IMG/VR virus record: IMGVR_UViG_3300050821_002787 | Location: 1 to 40,125 of that record | Strand: one strand, 5' to 3' | Length of the DNA: 40,125 nucleotides | Source of the DNA: a virus | Shown: one piece after another, positions 7,656 to 23,775 of the stretch | Position numbering within the stretch: the first letter of the stretch is position 1 | Layout of the letters: every line of letters starts with the position of its first letter | Made by a program: the position numbers and the translations under genes | The notes under the pieces: generated by a model | What the model was told of the DNA's origin: nothing | Database searches by the model: none | Seen by the model: only the letters and a program-made list of their open reading frames with translations

Positions 7656-9783
7656 GCGAGATATATTTACCATTATTATCAGTTCTGCTTTTAAATATTT
7701 TATCAAATTTTCTTTTTCTATTAACGTTTATAACTGAACTATAATCTGTCCCTGTCTTAAATTCGTTTAGTTTTAGAATATTATCTATCTTAGCTTTTAA
7801 TGTAGTATCAATCATTTTAGAATATATTTCGTCGCACATATCTACAAAAGATGGTTTTGAGAAAGCAGTTGATAGGTTTACCACAGTCATAGCTAAGTCA
7901 TCATGCGCAGAATCAGCTTTATATACAGCATTACCAGCAGCTGTTTCGTGCTTAACAAAAGTAGTTAATTCTCTAATTGTATCTTCGTTATACACTACAA
8001 TAGATCGGCTCTGCATAGCATCCTGATAGTCTTTTACCATCAAATTTTTAGAGCTAGTAACTTTTAAACCTACTTCATCTTTAACAGCATCTACCCTATG
8101 ACGGTATTTGAAAAATAAGTGAGAACCGTAATTATTATTTCCATCAAAAATATTAGGTAGATGTGCTAGTAGTTCTGGTCCACCACAATTTAATTCCAGA
8201 ACAACTTTGATGTTATCCTCATTAAACAAATCATAACAGATGCAATAAAGCAATTCAGCTACCTGTGATGTGGCTATAACATTACTTCTATAAACGCCAA
8301 CTTGATCAAGTTTAAAAAAATGAGTTAATTTGGTAAACGAATCACCATATAAATCTATTATATTTGAATTTTTAAAATCAACCTTGAATATATTTATAAC
8401 AGTGTAATCCTGTCCCAATCCTTCTGACATATCCACAGAAATTATTATTTTATAATTTTTGGCTTTCTCTAATTCAAACATGTCAGGATTATCTATCCAT
8501 TTCAAATTATCCCACTTGAATCGTAATTTCTCATTAAATTTGTCAATATCATGAAATATGAAATTTTTCTTATTAGAGTTTAGTTCTTCTACTAATTTTT
8601 CATCAAGTAATGATCTGTCTGCAGTTACAAATTGTAACCCATATTCCTGATTGAATGCATCTTCACCACCTATATCTTTTATTGTTTCTTTTTTCCATGT
8701 CGTTATTTCTGAAAATTCTAATAAACGAATATCGTTAAATTCTTCCAATAAAATATCTTCTTCTGAACATTCATTATTATTATAAATATAAATAATATCT
8801 TTATTTAATTCGTTACTATATGACATATCCATTTTTGTAGAAGGATATTTATTTTTTAAATCTTCTAATAAATCATTTTTATCTATATTTAATGTATGTA
8901 GCTTAGATTTATTTAATCTAATGTGTGTACAAAAACGCATTGGAATTTGCCACCAATAAACTCGTTTAGCATGGAAGTTATTTTTTTGTGGGTCACCTTC
9001 TGGTCTTTCTGCATCGGTTAAAATCTTATGAAATAAATTGAATCCTCGGGGTGTAGATATCAAAGTTACTTTTGAGTTATCCATGGATGTGATGGTAGGA
9101 AATACAGATGTGTGAAATTTAACAAGAGTATTAGCTTCTGGTATAGCGTATTCATCTGCAAGCCAATAATCAACGTTAGCACCCACACCAGATGATTTAG
9201 AAACTGTTGCTGATTTTATTCTTGATTTATTGTCTAATAAGATACTACTTTGTGTCCAGTTCATTATACCTTTTTGTAAAAAATAAGGAATATTTATATA
9301 AATTTCTTTTATCTTATCAATTAAATCATATATCGTTGCCCATTGGTTGGCGGTTATTAAGACATTTTTGTTGTTGTTGAAGAGAATGAAATGTAAAATA
9401 TGGATGCCACAGACAATCGATTTGCCCGATTGTCTTGACATCATTAGCACATTAAATCTATTTTTTATCAACATCTCTAAATGTTCTAATTGATAGTCTC
9501 TAAGTTTTATAATTCTATGTTTTCCGTCTTCCGTTTTTACACGACAGTAATTTTGCGCGAAATACATTACATCCATTTTACATTTAATGTATTCAGCCTG
9601 TTCATCTTGTGTCATAGCGAAAGCTAATTTAGCCTTCTTGTGCCTAATTTTACCCATGTAAAATGGATTTTCTCCACGGTGTAATATTAAACCATTATTA
9701 ATTTTTTCTTCCGCTAAATCTATTTTTTCGGTTGACCAAATAATTTCTTTTTCTTGTTTATGTGGTTTAGATTCTTCAGACAT
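7645..9783 (-). CDS. terL: Terminase large subunit (712 aa)
   Basis: The ATP-driven DNA packaging motor with headful nuclease. N-terminal ATPase: Walker A-type SRQSGKS at 116-122, Walker B YWLADE ending at E211, and coupling motif STPRG near 244-248. C-terminal RNase H-fold nuclease: D451 in ISVDMSEGLGQDY, the conserved LELNCGG segment, and AHDDLAMT near the end supplying acidic metal ligands. It is longer than T4 gp17 (610 aa), with an Asn/Asp/Glu-rich insertion at about 285-355 between the two domains; I see no intein. It reads opposite to the sheath and tube genes. The start at 9783 overlaps the 3' end of the nuclease gene upstream by 8 bases, suggesting that nuclease gene arrived beside terL. 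Confidence 0.95.
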   Translation of the reverse strand: MSEESKPHKQEKEIIWSTEKIDLAEEKINNGLILHRGENPFYMGKIRHKKAKLAFAMTQDEQAEYIKCKMDVMYFAQNYCRVKTEDGKHRIIKLRDYQLEHLEMLIKNRFNVLMMSRQSGKSIVCGIHILHFILFNNNKNVLITANQWATIYDLIDKIKEIYINIPYFLQKGIMNWTQSSILLDNKSRIKSATVSKSSGVGANVDYWLADEYAIPEANTLVKFHTSVFPTITSMDNSKVTLISTPRGFNLFHKILTDAERPEGDPQKNNFHAKRVYWWQIPMRFCTHIRLNKSKLHTLNIDKNDLLEDLKNKYPSTKMDMSYSNELNKDIIYIYNNNECSEEDILLEEFNDIRLLEFSEITTWKKETIKDIGGEDAFNQEYGLQFVTADRSLLDEKLVEELNSNKKNFIFHDIDKFNEKLRFKWDNLKWIDNPDMFELEKAKNYKIIISVDMSEGLGQDYTVINIFKVDFKNSNIIDLYGDSFTKLTHFFKLDQVGVYRSNVIATSQVAELLYCICYDLFNEDNIKVVLELNCGGPELLAHLPNIFDGNNNYGSHLFFKYRHRVDAVKDEVGLKVTSSKNLMVKDYQDAMQSRSIVVYNEDTIRELTTFVKHETAAGNAVYKADSAHDDLAMTVVNLSTAFSKPSFVDMCDEIYSKMIDTTLKAKIDNILKLNEFKTGTDYSSVINVNRKRKFDKIFKSRTDNNGKYISPNS

Positions 9784-10774
9784 TGTTTAATATATTATTT
9801 ATAGCAAGTTTTATCTTGATATGTTTTATTATTTTTTTCATCTCAATGTTTAAGTTAACACGATATGATATTCTATATAGTATTATATTGTTGCCTTTGC
9901 AATATTGTGTTTTTATAGAGTCTCGAAGTTTTGTTAACTCTAATCTTTTTATCGCTTCTTCTCCTTTGTAAAATTTCTCTATCGTGTAATGAAATACACC
10001 ATCAAACTCAATACATATATTAAGATCTACTATTTTAAAATCAAATCTTAATTTTCGCATAAATCTACAATCATCAAACATATATTCTCTGATATATTTT
10101 ATATTATTTTTGTCAAGAATTTTTACAATTAATAATTCACTTTTTGATTTATATCTCTTACATTTTGGGCAACCTGATCCTCTTATATGATCAGACCTTG
10201 TTTGTAAAAATTCACCATGTGTAGGTAAAGGACATATAATTGTAGTTTTAGAACTACAAGGTCCGTTAACATCTGATTTACTATAATCATAATAATTATT
10301 GTGAATTTCGTTTGAACGTCGGATAAAATCTTCTAATGTTATTTTAGGTGTACCATAACACTTAGGACAACCTTGTTTGTTATCTATATGTCCAATCGCG
10401 GATTGATAAAAAATGTGTAAACAATAATTACATTTTATTTCTACTTTAGTTCGATTGTTTATATAATTAGCATTATTATAATTATATTTTTCACCATGCA
10501 CAATTTTTGCTTCTGAAATAAATTGTTCAAGAGATTTCTTTTTTTGTAAATTTATAGACTCTTTTCTACATTTAGGGCAAGGATGTTTTGATCTACGCAA
10601 ATGATCAGATATTGATTGACTGAATATATGATTGTGCTTAATACACCTGATTGATATTATTTGATGTTTATTAATATACTCTGTTACTAATGAATAATCA
10701 AATTTATTATTATGTTTAGTATATGCATCTTCTAAAAATTCTTCAAGAGTGCGTTTTACAGTTCTTTTACTCAT
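9776..10774 (-). CDS. Free-standing homing-type endonuclease with zinc modules and Vsr-like nuclease domain (332 aa)
   Basis: About two thirds of the protein is a series of treble-clef-like modules, each with a C-x2-H or C-x2-C pair, a [FY]-x-Q step, a His and a CPKC pair (DUF723-type repeats), expected to read DNA. The C-terminal domain has LRFDFKI, then CIEFDGVFHYT, then K-L-R-D...YC..NNIILYRI. This is the E-x-D-G-x-x-H arrangement of Vsr/EDxHD-type nucleases. Four relatives occur in this window, all beside late genes. This copy abuts terL and overlaps it by 8 bases, and also overlaps the next relative upstream by 4. Likely role: spreading itself by cutting phages that lack it. Confidence 0.82.
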   Translation of the reverse strand: MSKRTVKRTLEEFLEDAYTKHNNKFDYSLVTEYINKHQIISIRCIKHNHIFSQSISDHLRRSKHPCPKCRKESINLQKKKSLEQFISEAKIVHGEKYNYNNANYINNRTKVEIKCNYCLHIFYQSAIGHIDNKQGCPKCYGTPKITLEDFIRRSNEIHNNYYDYSKSDVNGPCSSKTTIICPLPTHGEFLQTRSDHIRGSGCPKCKRYKSKSELLIVKILDKNNIKYIREYMFDDCRFMRKLRFDFKIVDLNICIEFDGVFHYTIEKFYKGEEAIKRLELTKLRDSIKTQYCKGNNIILYRISYRVNLNIEMKKIIKHIKIKLAINNILNNV

Positions 10775-12080: not shown

Positions 12081-12257
12081 ATGAAACCACTTAACCATTT
12101 AAACGGCCAAATATCAGACGAATTAAAGAATCAATTAGAGTTAATTTTTAAGAATACAAATATTGATGAGGAAAAACAATTAAATCTTGTCGCGCTGATT
12201 AATAAAGTGTATAATTCTGCTAATACTAAGAGAGAGTACTATTCGTATAAAAAGTAA
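12081..12257 (+). CDS. Small unknown protein upstream of tail sheath (58 aa)
   Basis: Starts MKPLNHLNGQISDELKNQ and ends REYYSYKK-stop. A mostly helical, charged protein with no membrane segment. It has its own TTAATATATAG element 24 bases upstream and a probable terminator straight after the stop, which supports a real, separately expressed gene. Its place just before the sheath suggests a late or virion-associated role, but I recognise no family. Confidence 0.6.
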   Translation: MKPLNHLNGQISDELKNQLELIFKNTNIDEEKQLNLVALINKVYNSANTKREYYSYKK

Positions 12258-12286
12258 CTAAAAAACAACCAATTGTTAGTTTTTTT
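12256..12286 (+). terminator. Probable terminator after the 58-aa gene
   Basis: AACTAA (12256-12261) pairs with TTAGTT (12276-12281), with an inner CAA/TTG pair and a following run of seven T. The stem is weak and bulged, but position and T-run fit an intrinsic terminator. Confidence 0.45.
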
Positions 12287-12288
12287 AT

Positions 12289-12299
12289 TTAATATATAA
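12289..12299 (+). promoter_or_regulatory. TTAATATATAA element before tail sheath
   Basis: Exact motif ending 20 bases before the sheath start codon, directly after the upstream terminator. The best-placed candidate for a phage late promoter. Confidence 0.5.
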
Positions 12300-12319
12300 A
12301 CAAAAAAGAATCAATACAC

Positions 12320-15300
12320 ATGCCTAATACAAATCCCTCAAAATACAGCAGACCCGGTATATTTGTTGAAGAGTTTGATAACTCTGTGATAACTACACCG
12401 CAAGTCATCGGAACAACACCATTGGTGATAGGCTTTTCGCGCAAAGGGCCAGTAAATACACCTATTCTGCTTCAAAATCAAAATGATTTGACAAATGTAT
12501 TTGGTATTTTAGATAGAAATCTTGAAAGAAAAGGTAGTTTTTTTCACAGAACAGTATCTAAAATGCTTGAAACAAATAATTGTTTTGCAATAAATCTGTT
12601 AGAAACTGATCCTGTGTTGGATCAAATACAATACATTGGTATGTCTACTGCTGCTCAGTATGATAATGATATTATACGTACTAATTCATATTCGAAGTTC
12701 TTTGATACTACTGGTTTTTGGAAACGCGATACTCTTTCTTTTTTAAATATTGTAAAAAATGACCCTAATGCATCACAACGAGTGCTTAACTTTACTAATA
12801 TGTCAGGTAGTAATATTACTATTTTTACATTCAAGACTGTACTTACTACGTTTGATCAACCTCTTAGTAATTATTATGTTCAGCCTTCAACACCTCCTAG
12901 TTACACAAATCCAACAGATTATGCGTCAGATTATATGATTGACATTCTTGTTATACAAGGAAATTGGACTAATTATCAGAATCTTTCTGTTGATGCTAAG
13001 TATGGAACATATTTTGACGTAACAGGTTTGCGCAAGACACAGGTTCAAAATTTTTTAAATGATCGTTCAGTTAATGTCCTTAAATATTACCAAGGACTTT
13101 CTTTAATTCCTTTTTTCCGTGATTCAAATAACACTAATATTTTCGTAGAAACCGTTGTGAATAGAGATACCGATTTAACCGGATTATTCTGTGCGTTTAA
13201 TGCTGAACTTCTTGAAACAGACTATCCAAATGGATTAATCGATTTAATAGGTAATTCTCTTATAAATGATGAAGATAATATCACAAATATTGATTTTCTT
13301 TCCTATAATGATACCATAATAGAAAGTCTCTCTTATCCTCAGGTTCTTTTAGACACACCAGGTAACGTAATTTCCATGGGTGTTAGTGGATCGAACAATT
13401 TATTCCGTCTGTCAGCATCCGGTTCAACAACAAGAACTGCATATTTTGCAGAAGGGTTTGTTTCGGGTGTTATTAGTTCTGGTACAAGTTCGACATATCT
13501 TAATGTAAGTATCCCAGGACCTTCTTTTTCATCAGTTATAGTTGGCAGTTATGGGGCAACTAGTTCAATATTAGGAGTGACTATTTCCGTTGCGGCTGGT
13601 GCATATTCTGTTGTAGGCGGTGCTGAAATAGACACTGTTCAAGGAACTTATTCTATGACATTTTCAGCTGCTAATTATATTGTAGCTTCTGGCACATCTT
13701 CTAGCTTTATGTCTGTATTTACATTAAATACATCAGGACAAATTGTGCGTGCTGATAATTTATCTAACAATACCAATTTAAGTGTTAATGCCACAGATAT
13801 CGTACTTGGTTATGCCAATGTATCGATATTTAATAACTCAGTTGATAATATTAACTATTTCACACAATTTAATTATACACCAGTGACAGTTAATGCTGCT
13901 GGATTTATTGAATTAAAACAAGGTTCAACACTTGATTATACAATGTCAGGAAATGCTAGTACAGGAGTTGTAACATTTACATTTAATAATACAAACGTAG
14001 TACCTGATACTAGCCAATATGTAGTAAATCGTCGTATTAAAGAATTTAATTATATAAGTAACTTCTTGACTAGTCCTAATGTGGCTGAAATGGTCGTTAT
14101 TGATGATATTGGATCTAAACATTCGTTAGCTGGTATGTCAGTGACAAATGTTGTTACATCAACATCACTTAATAAATCTTTCACACTTAATACTAATATT
14201 TTAGCAGGCATTACTAATTTAGTAAACGGTAATTTGCTTCTTTATATTGTAGACAATGAATTCATCATGGATGCTACATCTTTGATTACTAAAAATACAT
14301 TGTATAATAACACCACTCCTGGTATTGTTGCTAGATATTCTCAATTTTATACGGATTTTGTTGCTGGTAATATTAATACAGGTGATTTTTTCTATGAGAA
14401 TTTATTATCTAAATCTTATAATGTATTGTTTGAAGATATTTCTGGACAATCTTATATTATATTCTCTGGACAAGTAACTGCACCAACAACATTTGTGACT
14501 AATTCTAAAATAATTTTACCTAGTGCAGTCACTAATACTGGTACATTTACAATTGAAGACCCTAATAACTATGCTGCTCCTTTAGGTTTAACAGGAAGTT
14601 TCGCTTACAAAATTGCTGAAGCAGTTACAACAGAAACTGTATTAGATGCGGCATATCTTTATAACGCTCTTAATAAGCATTATTTAGAAATGTACTTAGA
14701 TAGTAATTTGAATTTGACAGTTGATTTTATGGATTCATTGATTCAAACTCCTAATCCTATTGTTAATTTAGCTAATAACACAACTATTTTTGTTTCTTCT
14801 CAAAAATCAAATTACCGTGAGACAGTTGAAATCGCTCAACCTACTACTTATGTACAAACACCAAATAAAGTTCTTGTCAACGGTGCTCGTTATACACAAG
14901 TTAAAATAGGTGATTTCTTAGAAGCGTATGTAGATCCTACAACAGTAGTAGCTGGTGAGATACCTAAACATCTTACACGTATTCTATCTAAGAAAGTTTG
15001 GTCAGGAGATACAACATTAGTTGAAATAACTTGTGATGCTACCGTTAAATTGTATAATTATAATGGTGATTTACAGACTTACAGATTTACAGATATTGGT
15101 GACTATATAAATACTTATAAAGGGGTAACCTTGGCTGGTTTTAGGATTCGTCAAGCATCTATCCCTGACGGTACAGAGACACGTCAAGCATCAATTCTGA
15201 GTTTGTTGGATATCGGAACACCTTTATTTAATGCTATCACAGATAAGGAAAATATTACTTTCCGATATTTGGTAGATTCATTTGGTTTAGGTCTTACTGA

Positions 15301-16162
15301 GTTTTCTAAACAGCAGTTAGCAGATATTTGCGGAACTCGTCTTGATTGCTTTGGTTTCTTAAATATGCCATCTATGCGTTCTTTTAGAGAATCTACGTCA
15401 CCTTCATTTGTTGATGCTAATGGAGTGCTCAGTACTGCGTTCATTGCAGTAGGAGGAGATCCTAGCTCATCGCCTGCGTTCTTATATAGCTTCGCACAAG
15501 GTATAGGTGATACTAGCGTTGGTTATTTTGCACCATATGTAACAACTAATGATAACGGAACTCCTGTATCAGTACCTCCAGCAATGTTTGTCGCAAATGC
15601 TTACTTACGTAAGTTTAATACAACACAAACAAATATTTTTCCATGGACAATTGTTGCAGGTATAACAAATGGTCGTTTAACTGGCATAACTTCTCTTGAA
15701 ATGTCTTTCAACAATCAAGATATTATAAATTTAAATACTATGAAGGCAAATCCATTAGTATTTAAGCGTAATCGTGGATATGTTATAGAAACAGAAAATA
15801 CAGCACAAACACTGTTTACTTCTTCTCTATCTTTCATTCACTCACGTGAAGTTCTTATTGAACTTGAATATCAGTTGTCACAAATGTTGTTAGAATTTCA
15901 ATGGAAATTCAACACACCTGATGTACGTGCTGAAATTAAATTCCGTGCTGATAATATTACAGCACAGTTTATTAATCAGCAAGCATTATACAATGCTTTC
16001 AATAAATGTGATGCTGAAAATAATACACAGGCTATTATTGATCAACAGGCGGGTGTTTTAGATACGTATGTAGAAATTGTGAAGGGAATGGGAATTATTG
16101 TTAACAATATCACTATCTTACGTACTAATACAATTAATTCATCTGGTTTCCAGCCGCTTTAA
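12320..16162 (+). CDS. Tail sheath protein, greatly enlarged (1280 aa)
   Basis: The contractile sheath subunit. The N-terminus has the sheath hallmark (SRPGIFVEEFDNSV, then TTPLVIGFSRKGPVNTP and a FG-type loop). The C-terminal 350 residues resemble the conserved sheath core that links subunits (GITSLEMSFNNQDIINLN, IHSREVLIELEYQL, ending in alternating strands VEIVKGMGIIVNNITIL). It is about twice the length of T4 gp18 (659 aa). The extra material, about residues 330-900, is rich in Ser, Thr, Gly and Asn with many short beta strands, as in surface-exposed decoration domains. Codon use is less A/T-biased than in the small genes, as expected for a highly expressed virion gene. It is followed by a strong terminator. 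Confidence 0.92.
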   Translation: MPNTNPSKYSRPGIFVEEFDNSVITTPQVIGTTPLVIGFSRKGPVNTPILLQNQNDLTNVFGILDRNLERKGSFFHRTVSKMLETNNCFAINLLETDPVLDQIQYIGMSTAAQYDNDIIRTNSYSKFFDTTGFWKRDTLSFLNIVKNDPNASQRVLNFTNMSGSNITIFTFKTVLTTFDQPLSNYYVQPSTPPSYTNPTDYASDYMIDILVIQGNWTNYQNLSVDAKYGTYFDVTGLRKTQVQNFLNDRSVNVLKYYQGLSLIPFFRDSNNTNIFVETVVNRDTDLTGLFCAFNAELLETDYPNGLIDLIGNSLINDEDNITNIDFLSYNDTIIESLSYPQVLLDTPGNVISMGVSGSNNLFRLSASGSTTRTAYFAEGFVSGVISSGTSSTYLNVSIPGPSFSSVIVGSYGATSSILGVTISVAAGAYSVVGGAEIDTVQGTYSMTFSAANYIVASGTSSSFMSVFTLNTSGQIVRADNLSNNTNLSVNATDIVLGYANVSIFNNSVDNINYFTQFNYTPVTVNAAGFIELKQGSTLDYTMSGNASTGVVTFTFNNTNVVPDTSQYVVNRRIKEFNYISNFLTSPNVAEMVVIDDIGSKHSLAGMSVTNVVTSTSLNKSFTLNTNILAGITNLVNGNLLLYIVDNEFIMDATSLITKNTLYNNTTPGIVARYSQFYTDFVAGNINTGDFFYENLLSKSYNVLFEDISGQSYIIFSGQVTAPTTFVTNSKIILPSAVTNTGTFTIEDPNNYAAPLGLTGSFAYKIAEAVTTETVLDAAYLYNALNKHYLEMYLDSNLNLTVDFMDSLIQTPNPIVNLANNTTIFVSSQKSNYRETVEIAQPTTYVQTPNKVLVNGARYTQVKIGDFLEAYVDPTTVVAGEIPKHLTRILSKKVWSGDTTLVEITCDATVKLYNYNGDLQTYRFTDIGDYINTYKGVTLAGFRIRQASIPDGTETRQASILSLLDIGTPLFNAITDKENITFRYLVDSFGLGLTEFSKQQLADICGTRLDCFGFLNMPSMRSFRESTSPSFVDANGVLSTAFIAVGGDPSSSPAFLYSFAQGIGDTSVGYFAPYVTTNDNGTPVSVPPAMFVANAYLRKFNTTQTNIFPWTIVAGITNGRLTGITSLEMSFNNQDIINLNTMKANPLVFKRNRGYVIETENTAQTLFTSSLSFIHSREVLIELEYQLSQMLLEFQWKFNTPDVRAEIKFRADNITAQFINQQALYNAFNKCDAENNTQAIIDQQAGVLDTYVEIVKGMGIIVNNITILRTNTINSSGFQPL

Positions 16163-16177
16163 TTTAATATTAAAATT

Positions 16178-16210
16178 AAAAAGCCACCAAAATAAATTGG
16201 TGGCTTTTTT
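16178..16210 (+). terminator. Strong intrinsic terminator after tail sheath
   Basis: Thirteen-base-pair stem AAAAAGCCACCAA (16178-16190) with TTGGTGGCTTTTT (16197-16209), loop of six. It lies 16 bases after the sheath stop. The A-run on one side and T-run on the other let it work for both strands, also ending transcripts of the converging 16225 gene. Confidence 0.92.
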
Positions 16211-16224
16211 GTTTAGCAGTAACA

Positions 16225-17418
16225 TTAGATAGATAATATATCGTTTATCATTAATTTAATCTTAATGTGCTTAATGATTTTATTCATAATAGGCTTTAAA
16301 GGAACGAAATAAGGTATCCTATAAAGAATTATATTGTTGGTTTTACAGTATTCTGTTTTTATTTTATCACGGAGTTGAGTTAATTGAAGCATTTCCTTTC
16401 TTTTTTCTTCGTTTGTGTAAAATCGTTCAACTGTATAATGAAAAATGCCATCAAATTCAATACATAAGTTAATATTATCTAATTTAAAGTCAAATGGCAA
16501 TTTTCTTTTATGTTTACATTTATCAAAAACATATTGTGTGCTATATTTTATCTCATTTTCGTTGAGCATTTTGGCTATATTCATTTCGCCTTTAGAATTT
16601 TGCGAAGCACATTTTGGACATCCTGCACCACGCATATGTTCTTTTCTACTTTGCGGAAAATCACCATGTCCTAATTTAGAACATGTGATAATAGTTTTTG
16701 AATTTATATCACCGTTAACGTCAGATTCTGGATAATCATAACGATTATCATGTATATCATTTGATCTTTTTATAAAATCTTCAAGTGTCATTTTAATATT
16801 TTTAAAGCATTCAGTACAACCGTTTTTAGAATTTAAAAAATAACGCGGTTCATTGGTAACAAATCCACAATTTATACAACCAATAATTATTGGAGTAAAC
16901 ATGTCTACAAAATTAACTTTAGATAAATCAAAAGTATTACCAAATTTTTCAATAAATCTTCTATTAAAATTTTCTTTGGTATATTCTAATTTGCCATTAC
17001 ATTCTGGACAACCTGTGCCAGTATCTGGTCGTAAGTGATCATTTGGTCTTTGATAAAAAATATGGCCTTTCCAGCAGTGTATTTCTATTTTCGTAGAATC
17101 ATTTATATAATTAACATTATCATAAATATATAAATCACCGTGCACCATTTTAGCATCTATTACAAATTGTGCGAATGGTTTCCTAGTTTTTAGGCTAATA
17201 AACTCTTTTCTACATAAAGGACAAGCATGTTTTGATTTTTTTAAGTGTACTTCTATTGATTGGTTAAACCAATGATTATGTTTAATACAACGAATACATA
17301 TAATCTGACTTCTATTTTTATATTCTGTTACTTTGTTATAATCAAATTTATCGTTATATTTTTCGTAAGCATCTTCTAAAAATTCACTTAATGTCCTTCT
17401 AACACTTTTTCTTTTCAT
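16225..17418 (-). CDS. Zinc-module/Vsr-like homing-type endonuclease (397 aa)
   Basis: Closest in length and sequence to the 10771 gene. It has four zinc modules with C-x2-H/C-x2-C pairs and CP-x-C ends. The nuclease domain has LPFDFKL, CIEFDGIFHYT and NNIILYRIPY. It lies opposite to, and just after, the tail sheath and shares the sheath terminator. Sheath and tube genes are normally neighbours, so this gene and the disrupted relative next to it are probably insertions between them. Confidence 0.82.
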   Translation of the reverse strand: MKRKSVRRTLSEFLEDAYEKYNDKFDYNKVTEYKNRSQIICIRCIKHNHWFNQSIEVHLKKSKHACPLCRKEFISLKTRKPFAQFVIDAKMVHGDLYIYDNVNYINDSTKIEIHCWKGHIFYQRPNDHLRPDTGTGCPECNGKLEYTKENFNRRFIEKFGNTFDLSKVNFVDMFTPIIIGCINCGFVTNEPRYFLNSKNGCTECFKNIKMTLEDFIKRSNDIHDNRYDYPESDVNGDINSKTIITCSKLGHGDFPQSRKEHMRGAGCPKCASQNSKGEMNIAKMLNENEIKYSTQYVFDKCKHKRKLPFDFKLDNINLCIEFDGIFHYTVERFYTNEEKRKEMLQLTQLRDKIKTEYCKTNNIILYRIPYFVPLKPIMNKIIKHIKIKLMINDILSI

Positions 17419-17448
17419 ATTTATTATATATTGAAATCAGACATTTGT

Positions 17449-17459
17449 TTAATATATAG
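17449..17459 (+). promoter_or_regulatory. TTAATATATAG element before the broken nuclease gene
   Basis: Exact motif four bases before the ATG at 17464. It has survived although the gene it served is disrupted, so it may now help transcribe tnpB. Confidence 0.4.
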
Positions 17460-17463
17460 CATT

Positions 17464-17562
17464 ATGTCTAAAAAACTTATATTAGAAGAATTTATTAAAA
17501 ATGCTCGTGCTGTACACGGTGATTTATATGTTTATGATAATTCAAATTATATAGTACTGTAA
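17464..17562 (+). pseudogene. 5' fragment of a zinc-module/Vsr-like endonuclease, cut by the TnpB element
   Basis: Encodes MSKKLILEEFIKNARAVH and on to DNSNYI, then leaves the family pattern (VL-stop). Intact relatives have the same block (for example VIDAKMVHGDLYIYDNVNYI in the 16225 gene) and carry on with a conserved zinc module. The break is at about 17553. The 3' part of the gene resumes at 18891, on the other side of tnpB. This copy seems to have lacked the first module even before disruption. Confidence 0.8.
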
Positions 17563-17618
17563 ATATATACAAAATATTCGAAATAATCTATTTTATGATA
17601 ATAATATATAGTATTAAG

Positions 17619-18878
17619 ATGCAATTAACTGAGAGACACATAGTACGAAATAATGATGTGATGAAAGATTTATGCAATAAATCTGCTATGTTATATAATT
17701 TTTGTTTATATCATATGAGGCAGGTTTGCTTTGGTAAACTAGAGAAATTTTCTGAATTTGAGTTAAGTAATTTATTATGTGAGTTTAAACAAGAAGATTT
17801 TGTAGCATTGCCCGCACCAACTTCTCAACAAGTCATTAAATTAATGTTCAAAAATTGGAAAGCTTATTGGGCTGCTATGCGGGAATACAAAAAATGTCCA
17901 AGTAAGTTTAATGGTAAACCTAAAATTCCAAACTATATTAAAGACAGTAAGACAAAGAATAAACTTAATGTTGTAGTTTTTACGAATCAACAAATAAGAA
18001 TTAAAGATAACTATATACATTTTCCTAAAAAGACAGGATTAAAACCAATAAAAACGAAAGTTAAAACAGCAGATCAAGTACGAATTGTACCACAATCTGG
18101 TGGATTTATAGTAGAAGTTGTTTATACACAACAACCTATCACTCTACCTAAATTAGTACCAGAGAATAAAATGAGTATTGATCTTGGAGTAAATAATCTG
18201 GCTACTTGTACAACAAATATCGAACATCCTTTCATTATTGATGGTAAAGAACTTAAGTCAATAAACCAGTATTACAATAAAGAAAAGGCTCGACTACAAA
18301 GTTACATTAGTGATAAAGGAACTTCTAAAAAACTCACTAATCTAACACACAAAAGGAACAACAAAGTAGAAAACTATATACATCAAGCAAGTAGAATTAT
18401 AATAGATTATTGTATTAAGTATAAAATAAGTGAAATAGTAATAGGTAAGAATGTAGGTTGGAAGGACGGTATCAGTATCGGTAAAGTTAATAATCAAAAG
18501 TTTACTAGTATACCACATGCCAAATTTATTGAAAAAATAGCCTATAAAGCTGAACTGATAGGTATTAAAGTTACAGTTCATGAAAAATCTTATACATCGA
18601 AAGTTGACCATTTAGCTTTCGAAGAAATGAAACATCACGAAAAATACCTCGGGAAACGAGTGTTTCGTGGATTGTTTCAGAGTAGTATAGGTAAGTTACT
18701 AAATGCTGATGTTAATGGAGCAATCGGTATTGGCAGAAAAGTATTCGGGGATTCGTTCGTAAGTTCGATACTCGATAGAGGGTTGGCGTTCAACCCAGTT
18801 AGAGTTAATGTAAAATCAGCTTTCTGTACATTAAATCTACAAAAATCTACACAACTTAAACAGGTTGTTCAAAATTAA
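17619..18878 (+). CDS. tnpB: TnpB RNA-guided nuclease (IS1341-type, 419 aa)
   Basis: Start chosen at 17619 (MQLTERHIV), the usual start of this group; an in-frame ATG at 17595 would add eight residues. RuvC-I aspartate D188 lies in SIDLGVNN and the RuvC-III aspartate D364 in LLNADVNGA. At the usual RuvC-II glutamate place the sequence is IVIGKN, with G276. A conserved glutamate, E322 in VHEKSYTSK, is the likely substitute. The four-Cys zinc ribbon of standard TnpB is missing: after TSK comes VDHLAFEEM with no C-x2-C. In TnpB systems the nuclease is guided by RNA copied from the element's right end and helps the element persist. The gene is complete, so activity is plausible. Confidence 0.9.
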   Translation: MQLTERHIVRNNDVMKDLCNKSAMLYNFCLYHMRQVCFGKLEKFSEFELSNLLCEFKQEDFVALPAPTSQQVIKLMFKNWKAYWAAMREYKKCPSKFNGKPKIPNYIKDSKTKNKLNVVVFTNQQIRIKDNYIHFPKKTGLKPIKTKVKTADQVRIVPQSGGFIVEVVYTQQPITLPKLVPENKMSIDLGVNNLATCTTNIEHPFIIDGKELKSINQYYNKEKARLQSYISDKGTSKKLTNLTHKRNNKVENYIHQASRIIIDYCIKYKISEIVIGKNVGWKDGISIGKVNNQKFTSIPHAKFIEKIAYKAELIGIKVTVHEKSYTSKVDHLAFEEMKHHEKYLGKRVFRGLFQSSIGKLLNADVNGAIGIGRKVFGDSFVSSILDRGLAFNPVRVNVKSAFCTLNLQKSTQLKQVVQN

Positions 18879-18890
18879 TAACGTGATAGA
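18750..18890 (+). ncRNA. Candidate guide (omega) RNA at the tnpB 3' end
   Basis: The last part of tnpB is unusually G/C-rich and folded for this window. GGGTTG (18780-18785) pairs with CAACCC (18791-18796) around GCGTT, and TCGA-TAC-TCGA lies just before. In known TnpB systems the guide RNA scaffold overlaps the tnpB 3' end and runs to the right end, followed by the guide. If so, the guide here would begin near 18885-18891 and match the endonuclease fragment. Inferred from position and hairpins only. Confidence 0.35.
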
Positions 18891-19196
18891 CAGTATAAAT
18901 TTGACGATTGTGCATATAAACGGAAGTTAAAATTTGATTTTAAAATTATAGGAGTTAATATATGCATTGAATTTGATGGTATTTTACATTATAAACCAAA
19001 AAGACTTAAAGACAAAGAGGAAGCTTTAAAAAGATTAGAATTAACTAAAATTCGTGACAAAATAAAAACAGAATATTGTCGAGCTAATAATATTATCTTA
19101 TATCGAATTCCATATTTTATGCCATTAAAAATAGAAGTAGGTAGAATAATAAAGCATATTAAAATCAAACTTGCTATAACTGATATATTATCTTAA
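18891..19196 (+). pseudogene. 3' fragment of the broken endonuclease (nuclease domain)
   Basis: Open frame from Q-Y-K-F-D-D-C to the stop, without its own start codon at the junction. It carries the Vsr-like core intact: LKFDFKI, CIEFDGILHYK, the K-I-R-D step and NNIILYRIPY, then a C-terminal helix as in the relatives. About 120 residues present in relatives between the 5' fragment and this one are missing, so even precise loss of tnpB would not restore the gene. An internal ATG inside GVNICIEF is out of frame; expression is unlikely. Confidence 0.8.
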
Positions 19197-19244
19197 TAAT
19201 AGTAATTTTTCGACTTTTGTTCAGCAAAAATCCATATTTAGTCA

Positions 19245-19255
19245 TTAATATATAA
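19245..19255 (+). promoter_or_regulatory. TTAATATATAA element before tail tube
   Basis: Exact motif 51 bases before the tube start. It is followed by the hairpin AGGGAA-AG-TTCCCT (19261-19274) in the leader and by a second A/T box (ATATAATATATAA). Candidate late promoter with a structured leader. Confidence 0.45.
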
Positions 19256-19306
19256 GAACAAGGGAAAGTTCCCTATATAATATATAATAAAAAGAAAACA
19301 ATAACG

Positions 19307-19900
19307 ATGCCACTACCACATTTTACGCAGTTGCGATCTACGAATACAAACTTCGAACCAGTATATCCTAGTTTATTTGAGATCACGTTCATTTTGCCTG
19401 CAATCTTACAGGCACAAGGTCGTGATCCAATTATGATGTTGGAGAACGCTACCAATATTGATTTTCCAGTAACACCAGATATCACTGCAGTTAGTCAACG
19501 TTTTAAGTATACAACTCGTGTGTATTTAACACCGCCAGAAAAAACTGACACTGAATTTTCCATTAAGTTTAACTTAAATGTGAATGAATCAGGATCTATT
19601 TTTGTTTGGAATACGTTAAAGGCATGGTATGATCTAGTATGGAATTCTCAGAATGGGTCAGTTTCTTATAAGAGGGACATTATAGGAACAATAATCGCTA
19701 ACCAGCATGATAAGAAAGGATTTGTAATAAGACGCGTAACTTATCAAAATGTCCAAATCAATAAACTTGCTCAATTTTCTCTTGATTGGACAAAAAATAC
19801 AGAAATAATGGAACCAATTGAATCAGGATTTGTATCCGACTACTGGATTGATGAGTACATTGATAACAGTTTCCAATTTAATCCACCAAGTATCTATTAA
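19307..19900 (+). CDS. Tail tube protein, T4 gp19-like (197 aa)
   Basis: Structural subunit of the inner tail tube. It opens PLPHFTQLRSTNTNFEPVYPSLFEITF, as in gp19-like tubes, where an N-terminal segment leads into the first strand of the beta-sandwich. It is mid-length for the family (T4 gp19 is 163 aa), with alternating beta strands and no membrane segment. Codon use is richer in C/G than the accessory genes. It should follow the sheath gene directly, but about 3.1 kb of mobile DNA separates the two. A sharp terminator follows the stop. Confidence 0.82.
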   Translation: MPLPHFTQLRSTNTNFEPVYPSLFEITFILPAILQAQGRDPIMMLENATNIDFPVTPDITAVSQRFKYTTRVYLTPPEKTDTEFSIKFNLNVNESGSIFVWNTLKAWYDLVWNSQNGSVSYKRDIIGTIIANQHDKKGFVIRRVTYQNVQINKLAQFSLDWTKNTEIMEPIESGFVSDYWIDEYIDNSFQFNPPSIY

Positions 19901-19913
19901 TAAATATTTTAAA

Positions 19914-20915
19914 TTAAGGAAGACGGCTATTGGCCGTCTTTTTTATTTCTTGCATAAACGTAATAAACCATATAATATAATTCATTTCTACTATGGTGTC
20001 TTGTTTATAATTAATTCTAAATAATGTAATATTATTTTCCATACAGTAATCATTCTTTATTATATCATGTGCCTTAATCAATTTGAGGGCTTCTTCACCA
20101 CCGAAAGTACTAAATGCTCTGGTGTGCTGTTCGCCATCATATTCTATTATAATATCTAAATTAGAGATTTTAAAATCAAACGGTAAAGTATTTTTATCTT
20201 TACAATCACAGTAACGAAAATTGTATATAGAAGAAATATCATTATTTTTTAATATGGAATTAATTAAACTTTCGTTGTAAGACATATTACAATAAGGACA
20301 TCCCTGTTTACCACTAACATGTTTATGTGGTGTTAACCAAAATGAACCATGTGTATTACAGATTATTTCTAATGGTTTTTCGCAATCAACATATATAGAT
20401 CTAGCATAATCATACAAATCAAACCAAACTTTGTTAGCTTTGTATATGAAAATATCTTTGTCTAATTTTCTACCGCCTGCGTAGCCATTTTCTACTGCAC
20501 ATTTGGCGCAGGGGCAAACAGTAACTAAATGCACATTTGGTATTTGTGTGATAGTAATATCATGTATTATGCATCTAAATAATATATTAGTAGTAGCATT
20601 TATATATTTGGTTAATGTGTAATCATAATTTTCATGTCCTTCGATATTTTTAGCTTGTTCTACAAAATATTTAGTATCCATATTCATAGGATAACCATAT
20701 TTTTCAATAAAACACATTTCACAACCAACGTGTCCCTTTGAATGACTCAACGAAGCTTGTGAAAATAATATATTATGTTTTAAACATAATATGCTAATTT
20801 TAGCACTAGCACTTTTGTAATAAAAATTTGGATAACTAAATAAATTTAGTATATTTAATCCCCACGCACTAACAAATCTTTCTAGTATTTCGTGCTTTTT
20901 TAATGGTACTGCCAT
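19914..20915 (-). CDS. Zinc-module/Vsr-like endonuclease, divergent member (333 aa)
   Basis: Fifth member of the family, more diverged: the N-terminal module reads CLKHNILFSQ with GCEMC, later modules use CIIHD/CAKC and CNTHGSFW/GCPYC. The nuclease domain keeps LPFDFKI, IIEYDGEQHTRAF and NNITLFRINY, so the E-x-D-G-x-x-H core is present. It ends inside the tail tube terminator, so its last residues (TANSRLP) are encoded by the terminator hairpin, a sign that the gene was inserted right at the tube's 3' edge. Confidence 0.8.
   Translation of the reverse strand: MAVPLKKHEILERFVSAWGLNILNLFSYPNFYYKSASAKISILCLKHNILFSQASLSHSKGHVGCEMCFIEKYGYPMNMDTKYFVEQAKNIEGHENYDYTLTKYINATTNILFRCIIHDITITQIPNVHLVTVCPCAKCAVENGYAGGRKLDKDIFIYKANKVWFDLYDYARSIYVDCEKPLEIICNTHGSFWLTPHKHVSGKQGCPYCNMSYNESLINSILKNNDISSIYNFRYCDCKDKNTLPFDFKISNLDIIIEYDGEQHTRAFSTFGGEEALKLIKAHDIIKNDYCMENNITLFRINYKQDTIVEMNYIIWFITFMQEIKKTANSRLP
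19920..19944 (+). terminator. Intrinsic terminator after tail tube
   Basis: Eight-pair stem AAGACGGC (19920-19927) with GCCGTCTT (19933-19940), loop TATTG, then a T-run. It lies 20 bases after the tube stop and doubles as the last codons of the converging nuclease gene. Confidence 0.9.
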
Positions 20916-20919
20916 ACCA

Positions 20920-20930
20920 CTATATATTAA
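20920..20930 (-). promoter_or_regulatory. TTAATATATAG element before the 19914 gene
   Basis: Exact motif on the - strand, four bases before the ATG at 20915, the same tight spacing as in the 17464 relative. Confidence 0.4.
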
Positions 20931-20984
20931 TATATATCAGACTCAATTTTTATAATAACTTATTGTTATTAAACTATATATAAC

Positions 20985-21009
20985 AAAAAAACACCCATAT
21001 TCTAGGTGC
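20985..21009 (-). terminator. Probable terminator after the small membrane protein gene
   Basis: On the - strand CACC (21005-21008) pairs with GGTG (20992-20995) around a nine-base loop, with a G-T closing pair, then seven T (20985-20991). Short stem but good T-run, about 20 bases after the 21031 stop. Confidence 0.5.
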
Positions 21010-21030
21010 TTTTCAATTCATTTAACGGCA

Positions 21031-21282
21031 TTATTCTAAGTTTTTATATATCGGATAAGTGATCATATATAATAAAGCAAATGGACCATACAGGAGACTA
21101 ATAAGGTACTTTACGATGGTCTTATCTGTAATCCATTCATATTTCCAGAAAAATAACTGGTACAGTATAGCAATTTCGCCCCACTCTAACCAATTAGCAT
21201 ATCCTTTAGACCATGAATAATCAGTCAATAGTATTGTAGCAGCTAATATAAGCATCCAAACAATCTGTTTCTTTTTCTTCAT
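21031..21282 (-). CDS. Small membrane protein (83 aa)
   Basis: MKKKKQIVWMLILAATILL gives a basic start and a hydrophobic helix. A second and a third hydrophobic stretch follow at about 37-48 (IAILYQLFFWKY) and 60-78 (YLISLLYGPFALLYMITYP). Likely an inner-membrane protein with two or three passes. Lys-rich N-terminus suggests it faces the cytoplasm. Function unknown. Its 5' end touches the truncated RuvC-like gene, so this gene may have replaced that gene's first half. Confidence 0.65.
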   Translation of the reverse strand: MKKKKQIVWMLILAATILLTDYSWSKGYANWLEWGEIAILYQLFFWKYEWITDKTIVKYLISLLYGPFALLYMITYPIYKNLE

Positions 21283-21298
21283 TTTATTACACTATAAA

Positions 21299-21823
21299 GT
21301 GGCGCACTTTGTGCGCGAAGACATTTCGAGTATTGGTAAGAATGAGAAGTTTGTTTCAAAGGAAGGAAATCGTAAGGTTAGAAATGTATGGCATCGCGAA
21401 ATAACAAATTGGCAGATTGAAAAACGATGTACAGAACTTGGTATTGAATTAATAGAAGTAAATCCAGCATATACTTCGTTTATAGGTAATGTGCTTCATG
21501 AAAACTTTGATGCTACGAATGCTGCGGTAGAGATCTGCAGGCGCGGTATGTTTAAATTTGATAAAGATAGTAAGCTGTTTTACCCAGCAGTTATAGGTAC
21601 AATCTCAGACACTATGAGTAAGTTTGCTGCACGTTCAAACGTTCAGCTTAAACCGAGAGATGTTCAAAAGATTAAAGACTGTAGCACATGGCCGGGACTT
21701 TTTAAAATGGCAAAAAACAACGGACTCAGATGGCGTTGGGGTTGGGAGGATCTTGCAAAAGTTCCACCAGTTTTTAGCATGGATACCACGAAAAGTAAAG
21801 TTAAGATCGTCAAGTTTACTTGA
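21299..21823 (+). CDS. C-terminal part of a RuvC/TnpB-like nuclease (174 aa, 5' half missing)
   Basis: The only start near the beginning is GTG at 21299. From its first residues it reads as the back half of a TnpB-like RuvC nuclease. REDISS matches the RuvC-II E-D-L step. A linker with W-x-I-E-K-R-C leads to ELGIELIEVNPAYTS, and FDATNAAVEICRRG matches the RuvC-III D-x-N-A-A-x-x-I-x-x-R-G step. RuvC-I, with its first catalytic Asp, and the whole N-terminal domain are absent. Upstream the frame stays open only to 21221 and lies antisense to the membrane protein gene. So it is a 5' truncation, or one half of a split gene whose other half is elsewhere. The uninterrupted 174 codons argue against long decay. 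It is not closely similar to the TnpB at 17619. Confidence 0.6.
   Translation: MAHFVREDISSIGKNEKFVSKEGNRKVRNVWHREITNWQIEKRCTELGIELIEVNPAYTSFIGNVLHENFDATNAAVEICRRGMFKFDKDSKLFYPAVIGTISDTMSKFAARSNVQLKPRDVQKIKDCSTWPGLFKMAKNNGLRWRWGWEDLAKVPPVFSMDTTKSKVKIVKFT
21302..21316. repeat. GC-rich palindrome at the 5' edge of the RuvC-like fragment
   Basis: GCGCAC (21302-21307), TTT, GTGCGC (21311-21316): a perfect six-pair inverted repeat, strikingly G/C-rich for this window. It sits in the first codons of the fragment and beside the divergent membrane protein gene. It may be chance coding sequence, an operator between the divergent genes, or the scar of the truncation. Confidence 0.35.
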
Positions 21824-21826
21824 TAA

Positions 21827-21958
21827 TTATTTACTGTTTCGTCCTATTCGTGTATCTGAGAGATTAAGCTCTGAAAATTTTCGATAATTTTTATAAATGT
21901 CAAAAGCTGGTTGCTTTTTGAAAATATCTCTCAGGGCATTGCTAATTTTATTAATCAT
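21827..21958 (-). CDS. Very small unknown protein at operon end (43 aa)
   Basis: Begins MINKISNALRDIFKKQ and ends TRIGRNSK-stop. Its ATG overlaps the stop of the 21955 gene as ATGA, the coupling used through this operon, which is the main evidence that it is translated. Basic, probably one amphipathic helix. It ends three bases from the stop of the converging RuvC-like fragment. No family recognised. Confidence 0.55.
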   Translation of the reverse strand: MINKISNALRDIFKKQPAFDIYKNYRKFSELNLSDTRIGRNSK

Positions 21959-22257
21959 TTCAATATATCATTTATAGTATCGCTACGCATTGATTTGATT
22001 TCATTGGATGGAATGAATATGTTGCTTCTTTTATATCCATTAGCTTCTGTATAATCATAACAGGCTTGCCAACCTATGTCCGATATATTATAATCATCGT
22101 CTTCACCAAACCTAAATATTACGCCTAAAGGAGCATTTGAATCTTTATAAAAAGTTTCCCACAATATTTCAATCAAATCGCTATCTTGTTTTAAGCAATA
22201 AGTACCAGTTTTTGACGAATAGTGGACAAATAATTTTTCAAATTCTTTTAGTGTCAT
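21955..22257 (-). CDS. C-tail small protein, FRFG paralog (100 aa)
   Basis: Unknown function. Paralog of the 22877 gene: both start MT-x2-x-F with an aromatic helix, share a GVIFRFG/GLVFRFG strand and a W-x-x-C step. Tail SMRSDTINDILK matches the shared pattern. The upstream gene's stop overlaps its start (ATGA). Confidence 0.72.
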   Translation of the reverse strand: MTLKEFEKLFVHYSSKTGTYCLKQDSDLIEILWETFYKDSNAPLGVIFRFGEDDDYNISDIGWQACYDYTEANGYKRSNIFIPSNEIKSMRSDTINDILK

Positions 22258-22583
22258 TTTAGTAATTCATTAATTAATAATTTTCTGTGTTCCTTCTTAA
22301 AATTATAAACTACATGGACATAATTTGCGTCTTTATTATATTGAACCACTTTAAGATTATTCTTGGTGACCCATATATCTAATACTTCATTACTATTTGG
22401 ACATATTATATTACGAAATATAGGTGATAGTTTATCTTTTAAACATTTTATCGAAACATTAGTGAAATAACGTTCGTCACCAGTAAAATAATGTCCATGG
22501 TCGATTACTACATCTTTTACCGGAATAAGTGGATACAATTCTAATTGTTCAAATATTATTTTTTTATATTCTTCTTCTTTCAT
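22254..22583 (-). CDS. C-tail small protein (109 aa)
   Basis: Unknown function. Middle with His/Tyr-rich strand (VVIDHGHYFTGDERYF). Tail EHRKLLINELLK. Coupled at both ends by ATGA overlaps. No membrane segment. Confidence 0.7.
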   Translation of the reverse strand: MKEEEYKKIIFEQLELYPLIPVKDVVIDHGHYFTGDERYFTNVSIKCLKDKLSPIFRNIICPNSNEVLDIWVTKNNLKVVQYNKDANYVHVVYNFKKEHRKLLINELLK

Positions 22584-22858
22584 TTTAATATCTGTTCGAT
22601 TACTGATTTTCTTTTTTCTTTTAAAAAATTATAAATATAACTCATTTTAGGGACATCACCTACATATATCAGCAAAGTAATTTCATCGTCGTTAAGGTAT
22701 ACTTTACACCTCATATCATACTGCAAAAGTTCTTTGTTAATTTTTTGTGATAAAAGTAAGTTTAAAACTTTGCTATCTAAGAACACAAAATAATTGAAGC
22801 TTATAGAATTGTCTATTAGAAACTTTTCTATAATATCTTTATAATCTTTTTCGCGCAT
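22580..22858 (-). CDS. C-tail small protein (92 aa)
   Basis: Unknown function. Mostly hydrophobic/charged alternation suggesting a small alpha/beta fold. Tail KEKRKSVIEQILK, ending in TTAAAATGA, which also starts the next gene. An 18-base gap separates it from the gene upstream. Confidence 0.7.
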   Translation of the reverse strand: MREKDYKDIIEKFLIDNSISFNYFVFLDSKVLNLLLSQKINKELLQYDMRCKVYLNDDEITLLIYVGDVPKMSYIYNFLKEKRKSVIEQILK

Positions 22859-22876
22859 GTGTTATGAATTTATACG

Positions 22877-23170
22877 TTATGAGTTTAATATGCTGTCAAT
22901 AGTTTCTAAACGATTTTTTTGAATTAATTCAAGTGGGAAAAAATACGAATATGAATCCGGGTGATATTCGCTACCCTGAAAGCAAACATTCCAATTCTTC
23001 TCTATTATTCTATTTTGTCCAAACCTAAATACTAACCCAACAGCACCTTTGGTTTCATAAAAATACTCATACATTTTGCGTCCAAGATATGGATCAGACG
23101 ACTCATCATATAATACATCGTGTTCCTTTGTCCAATGTGTTAAAACTGCCAAAAATTGTTGATATGTCAT
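22877..23170 (-). CDS. C-tail small protein, FRFG paralog (97 aa)
   Basis: Partner of the 21955 gene by the LVFRFG strand and the N-terminal MTYQQFLAVLTHW helix. That F-x2-L-x2-W start recurs in the 28342 and 29361-29926 genes. Tail KNRLETIDSILNS. Function unknown. Confidence 0.72.
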   Translation of the reverse strand: MTYQQFLAVLTHWTKEHDVLYDESSDPYLGRKMYEYFYETKGAVGLVFRFGQNRIIEKNWNVCFQGSEYHPDSYSYFFPLELIQKNRLETIDSILNS

Positions 23171-23176
23171 TAGAAT

Positions 23177-23680
23177 TTATTTATAGTAAGAAACTTTCTT
23201 CAACGGTATGACAGGATTGCCCTTATGTTCGCACGGATTCCGGTATACCTTAGCAAGTTTTTCTACATCATCAGTTATATTATCCGCAGGATTAATAAAA
23301 AATCCTTGATCATAGACCTTCACACCATATGCTGTCATAAGTTCTCTACGAAGAATGTTTAGTTTGTCATAATCAATTTCTTCAACAATCTCTTTTGTTT
23401 TATCAGGCGCATACTCACCCATAGTATTAAAACTTGAAGGCATTGTATATAAAACTTTCTGATAAGAATTTGTTTTGCAAATTTTTTCTTTAGTTGCTAT
23501 AACAAAATTTTTAATATCTACGAATGTTTTAGTGAGGAGAACTTTTGGTACCCAACATTCAAACCAAAGTTGTTTATGCTTTTTGGTAAAATGATTTGTC
23601 GATTCCCAATACGGTACTTTAACAAAAACAGCTTTTTCTGTTTCTTTCAAAATATCGTAATTGAATTCCTTACTTTCCAT
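23177..23680 (-). CDS. Unknown protein, first gene of operon (167 aa)
   Basis: Not recognised. Trp/Phe-rich N-terminal half (KVPYWESTNHF, LWFECWVPKVLL), later EIVEEIDYDKLNIL and a short C-terminus without the shared tail. It directly follows a Bacteroidetes-type promoter (23698-23729), so it is probably made early by the host polymerase, with the small genes after it in the same transcript. Confidence 0.72.
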   Translation of the reverse strand: MESKEFNYDILKETEKAVFVKVPYWESTNHFTKKHKQLWFECWVPKVLLTKTFVDIKNFVIATKEKICKTNSYQKVLYTMPSSFNTMGEYAPDKTKEIVEEIDYDKLNILRRELMTAYGVKVYDQGFFINPADNITDDVEKLAKVYRNPCEHKGNPVIPLKKVSYYK

Positions 23681-23697
23681 GATAGTTATTTATAATA

Positions 23698-23729
23698 CAA
23701 AGGTACAAATAATATATGATATACGCAAA
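23698..23729 (-). promoter_or_regulatory. Bacteroidetes-type host promoter for the 23680-21827 operon
   Basis: On the - strand: TTTG (23726-23729), 20-base spacer, TACCTTTG (23698-23705), then 17 bases to the ATG at 23680. An exact match to TTTG-N19/21-TAnnTTTG. Confidence 0.7.
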
Positions 23730-23751
23730 ATGATAGTAGATTGTTAGTTAT

Positions 23752-23770
23752 TATATTAAAATTTAATATA
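23752..23770. repeat. A/T-only palindrome after the 23776 gene
   Basis: TATATTAAA-A-TTTAATATA, nine-pair inverted repeat just after the stop of the chimeric nuclease gene. It lacks a G/C stem and a clean T-run, so it is at best a weak terminator or mRNA end stabiliser. Confidence 0.3.
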
Positions 23771-23775
23771 AATAA

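What the first reader, a model, noticed from the sequence alone, without database searches (positions are those of the whole stretch)
17464..19196. TnpB element nested inside a homing-type endonuclease gene, with part of the target lost
Bases 17464-17553 and 18891-19196 are the two ends of one zinc-module/Vsr-like nuclease gene, as shown by alignment with four intact relatives in the same window. A complete tnpB lies between. About 120 codons of the target are missing, so the event was insertion plus deletion, or insertion into an already shortened gene. One selfish nuclease has inactivated another between two virion genes, a direct record of competition among mobile elements in a phage.
Basis: partly seen in the sequence, partly recalled or inferred. 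Interest (0 to 1): 0.72.

Follow-up and report, generated by a model that had tools for sequence, protein, structure and literature searches.

The report
TnpB nested in broken phage endonuclease
In a large bacterial virus, an RNA-guided nuclease gene (tnpB) sits inside the remains of another DNA-cutting selfish gene; the broken gene is real, but the inserted tnpB itself seems to have lost a residue it needs to cut, so this looks like layered genetic debris rather than an active weapon.

Summary
Bases 17464-17553 and 18888-19196 look like the 5' and 3' ends of one zinc-module endonuclease gene, with a complete tnpB (start probably 17619, stop 18878) between. In 12 related endonucleases just upstream of the same virion gene in other phages, 117-124 codons separate the two matching stretches, so about 120 codons are probably missing (in 7 of the 12 the 5' match is weak). 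A second contig repeats the arrangement at 100% identity. No empty allele was found.

The tnpB belongs to an IS607-type lineage lacking the canonical RuvC-II glutamate. It carries a strongly covarying hairpin inside its last codons, and its guide would be read from the broken gene. No transposase gene adjoins it. At the inferred alternative catalytic glutamate, E in 149 of 149 aligned relatives, it has lysine. So both nucleases are probably inactive now; 'one inactivated the other' is only partly supported, since the order of insertion and deletion is not recoverable. The nesting was not seen elsewhere (0 of 167 other TnpB loci), but the site often holds endonucleases.

An ordinary kind of event, a clean example. 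The most novel open reading, a nuclease-dead RNA-guided blocker of rival alleles, is unlikely (about 6%).

The parts
17464..17553 (+). 5' remnant of the endonuclease gene: ATG and first part of a zinc module
   Evidence: Scores against endoA-C far above shuffles; DNA match 17512-17553 to endoA, 88% over 42 nt
17554..17618 (+). spacer of unknown origin before tnpB
   Evidence: No similarity to endonuclease DNA above shuffles (143 of 300 reach it)
17619..18878 (+). tnpB, 419 aa with probable start at 17619; lysine at position 323
18780..18796 (+). covarying hairpin of the predicted reRNA (guide-RNA scaffold) inside the last tnpB codons
   Evidence: 114 of 117 core cells paired in 39 distinct sequences, shuffle maximum 91;
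18877..18887 (+). right border zone of the tnpB unit: AATAA (18877-18881) and six bases that may be element or target
   Evidence: Related element pairs lose similarity at or shortly after AATAA; endonuclease similarity resumes at 18888
18882..18907 (+). predicted guide region, start somewhere in 18882-18888, read from the broken gene
   Evidence: Inference from the border and from known TnpB biology; 20 nt from 18888 have 5 or more mismatches to every other place in the window
18888..19196 (+). 3' remnant of the endonuclease gene (nuclease domain without its start and without the conserved glutamate seen before it in relatives); 102 codons still open
16225..17418 (-). endoA, intact relative, 397 aa, divergent neighbour
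9776..10774 (-). endoB, intact relative, 332 aa
10771..11991 (-). endoC, intact relative, 406 aa
19914..20915 (-). endoD, more distant intact relative, 333 aa
12320..16162 (+). tail sheath gene
   Evidence: phrog_34521 tail sheath, E 3.9e-79
   Evidence: phrog_32623, unknown function; some relatives annotated as baseplate

Best explanation
An endonuclease gene with zinc modules and a C-terminal nuclease domain came to lie on the plus strand between endoA and the virion gene at 19307. A tnpB unit (coding region plus overlapping guide-RNA scaffold, without a transposase gene) now occupies it, and about 120 codons of the target are gone from the left side. In an active unit of this kind the RNA would take its guide from the DNA just right of the element, here the broken gene, and TnpB would cut the uninterrupted allele so that repair copies tnpB in, which is homing in effect. 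In this phage the endonuclease is a pseudogene and TnpB probably cannot cut, because the alternative RuvC glutamate is replaced by lysine. Shown: both gene ends, the nesting, the hairpin, the substitution. Inferred: that the two ends were one gene, the guide, the homing route, the loss of activity. Not known: whether the deletion came before, with or after the insertion.
For: Both ends in order, on one strand, above shuffles. Interval of 117-124 codons in 12 of 12 tube-linked relatives aligned, weak 5' match in 7. The site is often occupied by this family: 14 loci besides the window's virus, plus L025. Right border from related tnpB pairs (AATAA, 18877-18881) lies within 7 bases of where endonuclease similarity resumes (18888). 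Covarying hairpin. Position 323 is E in 149 of 149 relatives and K here; canonical position is G in 151 of 151. Serine recombinase beside 28 of 80 viral and 17 of 80 genome relatives but not here.
Against: No empty allele found. The broken gene lies on the opposite strand to the 14 tube-linked relatives. The 65-nt spacer is unexplained. Position 322 is still glutamate and might substitute; only 3 of 50 conserved columns deviate, so the protein is not generally decayed. No structure model was made.
Confidence: 0.65

Rival explanations
1. The endonuclease gene was already shortened by a deletion, and tnpB landed later at or near the scar; TnpB inactivated nothing.
For: About 120 codons are absent, more than simple insertion would remove. 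L025 shows an endonuclease of this family cut to a 111-residue ORF at the same site without any TnpB.
Against: The 3' piece is still open over 102 codons, which suggests a short time since the gene was broken; that does not order the two events.
Confidence: 0.4
2. The two pieces come from two different endonuclease genes brought together by turnover at this hotspot.
For: The phage carries four other genes of this family in the window, and the site accumulates such genes and fragments.
Against: The pieces are on one strand, in order, next to each other and both most similar to the endoA-C group.
Confidence: 0.15
3. TnpB still cuts, using the neighbouring glutamate 322 or another residue, and is an active homing unit.
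For: E322 is present, and 47 of 50 conserved columns agree. The hairpin is intact.
Against: Position 322 varies among relatives (E in 131 of 151; also D, N, Q, G, T), while 323 is E in 149 of 149 relatives.
Confidence: 0.2
4. Nuclease-dead TnpB kept as an RNA-guided repressor or blocker of the uninterrupted endonuclease allele in competing phages, similar in kind to TldRs.
For: Loss at one inferred catalytic position with the rest of the protein and the hairpin intact. Phage-encoded TldRs exist (PMC13418256, passages).
Against: One virus only, no evidence of selection; the guide would come from the phage's own flank; simple recent loss explains it as well.
Confidence: 0.06

Closest known systems
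IS607-type TnpB with adjacent guide RNA (for example ISFba1 TnpB, PMC11061315; passages seen)
   Same: TnpB family by curated cut-off; relatives adjoin serine recombinases; guide-RNA scaffold at the 3' end
   Different: No transposase gene here; canonical RuvC-II glutamate position is glycine and the alternative one is lysine; no match to a known RNA family; scaffold overlaps the coding region
Prokaryotic TnpBs and Fanzors with the alternative RuvC glutamate (PMC10711439, PMC11423790; passages seen)
   Same: The lineage keeps a glutamate at the alternative position (149 of 149 relatives)
   Different: This lineage has DLG or similar, not DPG, and no CxxC zinc motif at the usual place; this copy has lysine at the alternative position
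TldR, nuclease-dead TnpB-like repressors in prophages (PMC13418256; passages seen)
   Same: Predicted loss of RuvC cleavage with an intact guide-RNA hairpin
   Different: No regulated partner gene, no repression shown, a single virus
Phage homing endonucleases of the PHROG 559 / 9084 groups
   Same: Repeated treble-clef-type modules plus C-terminal nuclease domain; between virion genes
   Different: This copy is broken and holds a tnpB
Nested mobile elements in homing endonuclease ORFs, such as a group II intron interrupting a homing endonuclease ORF in Chaetomium mtDNA (PMC4801052; abstract start in listing)
   Same: One mobile element inside the ORF of another
   Different: There an intron that can splice out; here an RNA-guided nuclease gene with loss of target DNA, in a phage

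Membership tests
TnpB (RNA-guided endonuclease family) | Match to the curated family model | tested here: met
   NF040570 150.6 bits, cut-off 100; Pfam OrfB_IS605 above its cut-off
TnpB (RNA-guided endonuclease family) | Guide-RNA scaffold at the 3' end of the gene | tested here: met
   Covarying hairpin at 18780-18796; that it is part of the guide RNA is inferred
Active TnpB nuclease | RuvC D-E-D triad | tested here: not met
   D188 and D364 kept; canonical E position is G276, alternative position 323 is K, E in 149 of 149 relatives. E322 remains, so inactivity is predicted, not shown
IS607 element | Serine recombinase TnpA beside tnpB | tested here: not met
   No hit beside the window's tnpB (L130), hits beside 28 of 80 viral and 17 of 80 genome relatives
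IS200/IS605 element | Y1 TnpA transposase beside tnpB | tested here: inconclusive
   ORFs of 30 aa or more around tnpB in the window show only endonuclease, sheath and virion genes and short overlapping ORFs; no search with a Y1 profile was run
Pro-Fanzor | DPG motif plus alternative glutamate (PMC10711439, passages) | tested here: not met
   DLG in this protein and K at position 323
TldR | RuvC site inactivated while guide-RNA scaffold is kept | tested here: met
   Sequence prediction only
TldR | RNA-guided repression of a target promoter | not testable with these tools
   Needs an assay
Phage homing endonuclease of this module type (target gene) | Similarity to families annotated as homing endonuclease | tested here: met
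   3' piece: phrog_9084 homing endonuclease E 6e-18; best model phrog_559 is labelled HNH endonuclease
Vsr-like / EDxHD nuclease (target gene) | Vsr-like fold and catalytic residues | not tested
   Label recalled; no structure or profile of that fold was compared
Homing element (tnpB unit) | Cleavage of the empty allele and copying into it | not testable with these tools
   No empty allele found; no assay

The most novel reading that the evidence does not exclude
A phage tnpB took its guide from a rival endonuclease gene by lodging in it, then lost cleavage and is kept as a nuclease-dead RNA-guided blocker that silences uninterrupted alleles of that rival in co-infecting phages.
Probability: 0.06. 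Interest if true: 0.75.

Novelty: new member of a known kind. Interest (0 to 1): 0.36.

Why it matters
It is a clean case of one mobile nuclease lodged in another at a site where large phages often carry endonucleases, probably with both now inactive: a snapshot of the decay end of a homing cycle. Two side results may be of wider use: a hairpin whose pairing constrains the last codons of this TnpB lineage, and a natural substitution at the inferred alternative RuvC glutamate, which would test whether that residue is essential.

Tried and rejected
Empty-site search: among the 80 kept loci around the virion gene (132 found) only L006, the same virus, has TnpB there. The 3' piece found 35 loci: itself, another gene of the same virus (68%), then 51-53% for the next best. 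So no empty allele was seen in the kept lists.

Recurrent TnpB-in-endonuclease association: not seen, 0 of 167 other TnpB loci (flanks up to 1.5-5 kb, shorter at contig ends; some contigs are near-duplicates; these are the closest 80 of 215 viral and 80 of at least 525 genome relatives).

Gene conversion between endoA and the 5' piece (88% over 42 nt): not needed, the match is the conserved module core. Known RNA family: only a chance hit in the window stretch, and only tRNAs in one of 10 relatives. Target-adjacent motif: not determined, because the left border is undefined; three related tnpB pairs share nothing further than 0-11 nt before the start codon. Homology of 17554-17618 to endonuclease DNA: rejected. 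Guide match to intact paralogues: 5 or more mismatches in 20. Promoter-like sites: 18 found, 13.6 expected; terminator-like sites: 3 found, 0.6 expected, none used. Solved structures gave TnpB/Cas12f-type relatives only, no Fanzor.

Literature: no TnpB nested in a homing endonuclease gene was seen in the listings (listings and starts of abstracts only; open-licence library). Other searches. PMC10691335 was not held.

Full report
What is there. The window is a 40,125-base virus record, possibly a fragment. A 419-residue tnpB (17619-18878, plus strand; the mechanical ORF starts at 17595) lies between the 5' and 3' ends of an endonuclease gene. Profiles identify the tnpB clearly (Pfam; NCBIfam guided_TnpB 150.6 bits against a cut-off of 100). 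The 5' piece scores far above shuffles against endoA, endoB and endoC but not convincingly against endoD; the 3' piece matches all four. At DNA level the 3' match begins at base 18888. A second contig (L006) is 100% identical over window 11307-27232, including the whole arrangement; it may come from the same sample.

Was a piece lost? The number of codons between the matching stretches depends on the relative: 123 (endoB), 189 (endoA), 187 (endoC), 56 (endoD). The best yardstick is the family at the same place. I examined 82 loci around the virion gene at 19307 and its relatives (80 of 132 found, and two phage records); 65 hold at least 1 kb upstream of it. Apart from the window's own virus (L006), 14 have an endonuclease reading frame of 243-287 aa on the minus strand 75-254 nt upstream; two of these (L040, L041) run to the contig end, and L062, L064 and L066 look like copies of one virus. 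L025 has one on the plus strand at 488 nt. In the 12 of the 14 that I aligned the interval is 117-124 codons. In 7 of these 12 the 5' match is weak (scores 37-44, like shuffle maxima); in the other 5 it is 50-76. In L025 the 5' piece aligns to the last module and the interval is 54 codons. So a missing part of about 120 codons is likely, for a two-module ancestor.

History of the site. In the 14 loci the endonuclease is divergent from the virion gene. In the window, endoA (16225-17418, minus) would hold that place if the plus-strand broken gene with tnpB were absent; this is inference. L025 shows independent debris: a 111-residue ORF that looks like the N-terminal part of an endonuclease, beside an intact plus-strand endonuclease. 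L007 carries a different gene there, with a DUF7487 match (576 aa). L039 has none of these endonucleases between sheath and virion gene.

The TnpB lineage. Serine recombinases lie beside 28 of 80 viral and 17 of 80 genome relatives, so the lineage is IS607-type, but the window copy has none. In 151 aligned proteins the canonical RuvC-II glutamate position is glycine in all, and the alignment to a Cas12f chain puts that chain's glutamate there. PMC10711439 (passages) describes an alternative glutamate six residues before the first zinc-finger cysteine. Counting back from the first cysteine of the aligned solved chains gives position 323. PMC11423790 (passages) places the Fanzor glutamate in the loop before the TNB domain, which agrees. 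Position 323 is glutamate in 149 of 149 relatives and lysine in this virus. Three of 50 conserved columns deviate in this protein (median 1 in relatives, maximum 11), so it is not generally decayed. Loss of cleavage is a prediction from sequence; E322 next to it could compensate.

The guide RNA. The last tnpB codons hold a hairpin (18780-18796). In 39 distinct sequences with the motif (of 169 reading frames, 126 without it and untested), 114 of 117 core cells form standard pairs when two registers are allowed, against a mean of 78.1 and a maximum of 91 in 5000 deals of the 3' arms. In 25 sequences of one register, chosen by eye, 72 of 75 pair, against a shuffle mean of 54%. Related sequences are not independent, but single positions show GC, AT, TA and CG pairs, so RNA pairing constrains these codons. 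Folding of 18640-18887 has z = -2.59. Related element pairs stop being similar at or shortly after AATAA on the right (L131/L175, L088/L147, L185/L197; for L126/L135 similarity runs about ten bases further) and 0-11 nt before the start codon on the left in three pairs. In the window AATAA is 18877-18881 and endonuclease similarity resumes at 18888, so the guide would be read from the broken gene. Rfam gave no real match.

How it most likely works. An active unit of this kind would cut the uninterrupted allele at the guide match and be copied in by repair, which is homing in effect; this rests on established TnpB biology, and PMC11061315 (passages) reports motifs at the left ends of IS607 TnpB loci that match those needed for cutting. 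For this copy the machinery is probably inert: no transposase gene, lysine at the alternative glutamate, target gene broken. Whether deletion preceded or followed insertion cannot be told. A repressor-like role after loss of cleavage is possible, as described for phage TldRs (PMC13418256, passages), but one virus gives no sign of selection for it.

The nesting was seen once: 0 of 167 other TnpB loci have this endonuclease in the fetched flanks. The gene of 14 tube-linked relatives lies on the other strand. No empty allele is among the loci kept. The claim that one selfish nuclease inactivated the other needs an order of events that the data do not give.

Verdict. Real observation, ordinary kind of event, modest interest; the natural substitution and the covarying hairpin are the parts worth following.

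Noticed in passing
window 21299-21823 (+): A 174-aa ORF matches the TnpB-related domain TIGR01766 at its cut-off (32.1 vs 32 bits) and looks like a C-terminal TnpB-type fragment; 17 phage records hold relatives, mostly Prevotella Lak phages, and in IMG/VR only the same virus was found.
   Followed up: partly
L025:1511-2942: At the same place upstream of the virion gene, an endonuclease reduced to a 111-residue ORF lies beside an intact 353-aa plus-strand endonuclease: an independent case of debris without TnpB.
   Followed up: partly
L132, just after the tnpB, and window 18877-18890: Both share AATAACGTGATAGA at the putative right end although the DNA beyond is unrelated; chance or a longer shared end.
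   Followed up: no
L126 and L135, right flank of tnpB: Similarity of these two tnpB units runs about ten bases past AATAA, so they may sit at similar target sequences.
   Followed up: no
L131:2098-2191: A tnpB unit ends within a few bases of a tRNA gene, which would make its guide point into the tRNA.
   Followed up: no
window 23776-25281 (-) and 35555-36649 (-): Two further homing-type genes with NUMOD4 motifs, the second with HNH_3; the window is rich in such genes.
   Followed up: no
window 19307-19900 (+): The best named phage relatives of this virion protein are in uncultured phages of 635-642 kb (60-61%), so the 40 kb window may be a piece of a far larger genome.
   Followed up: no
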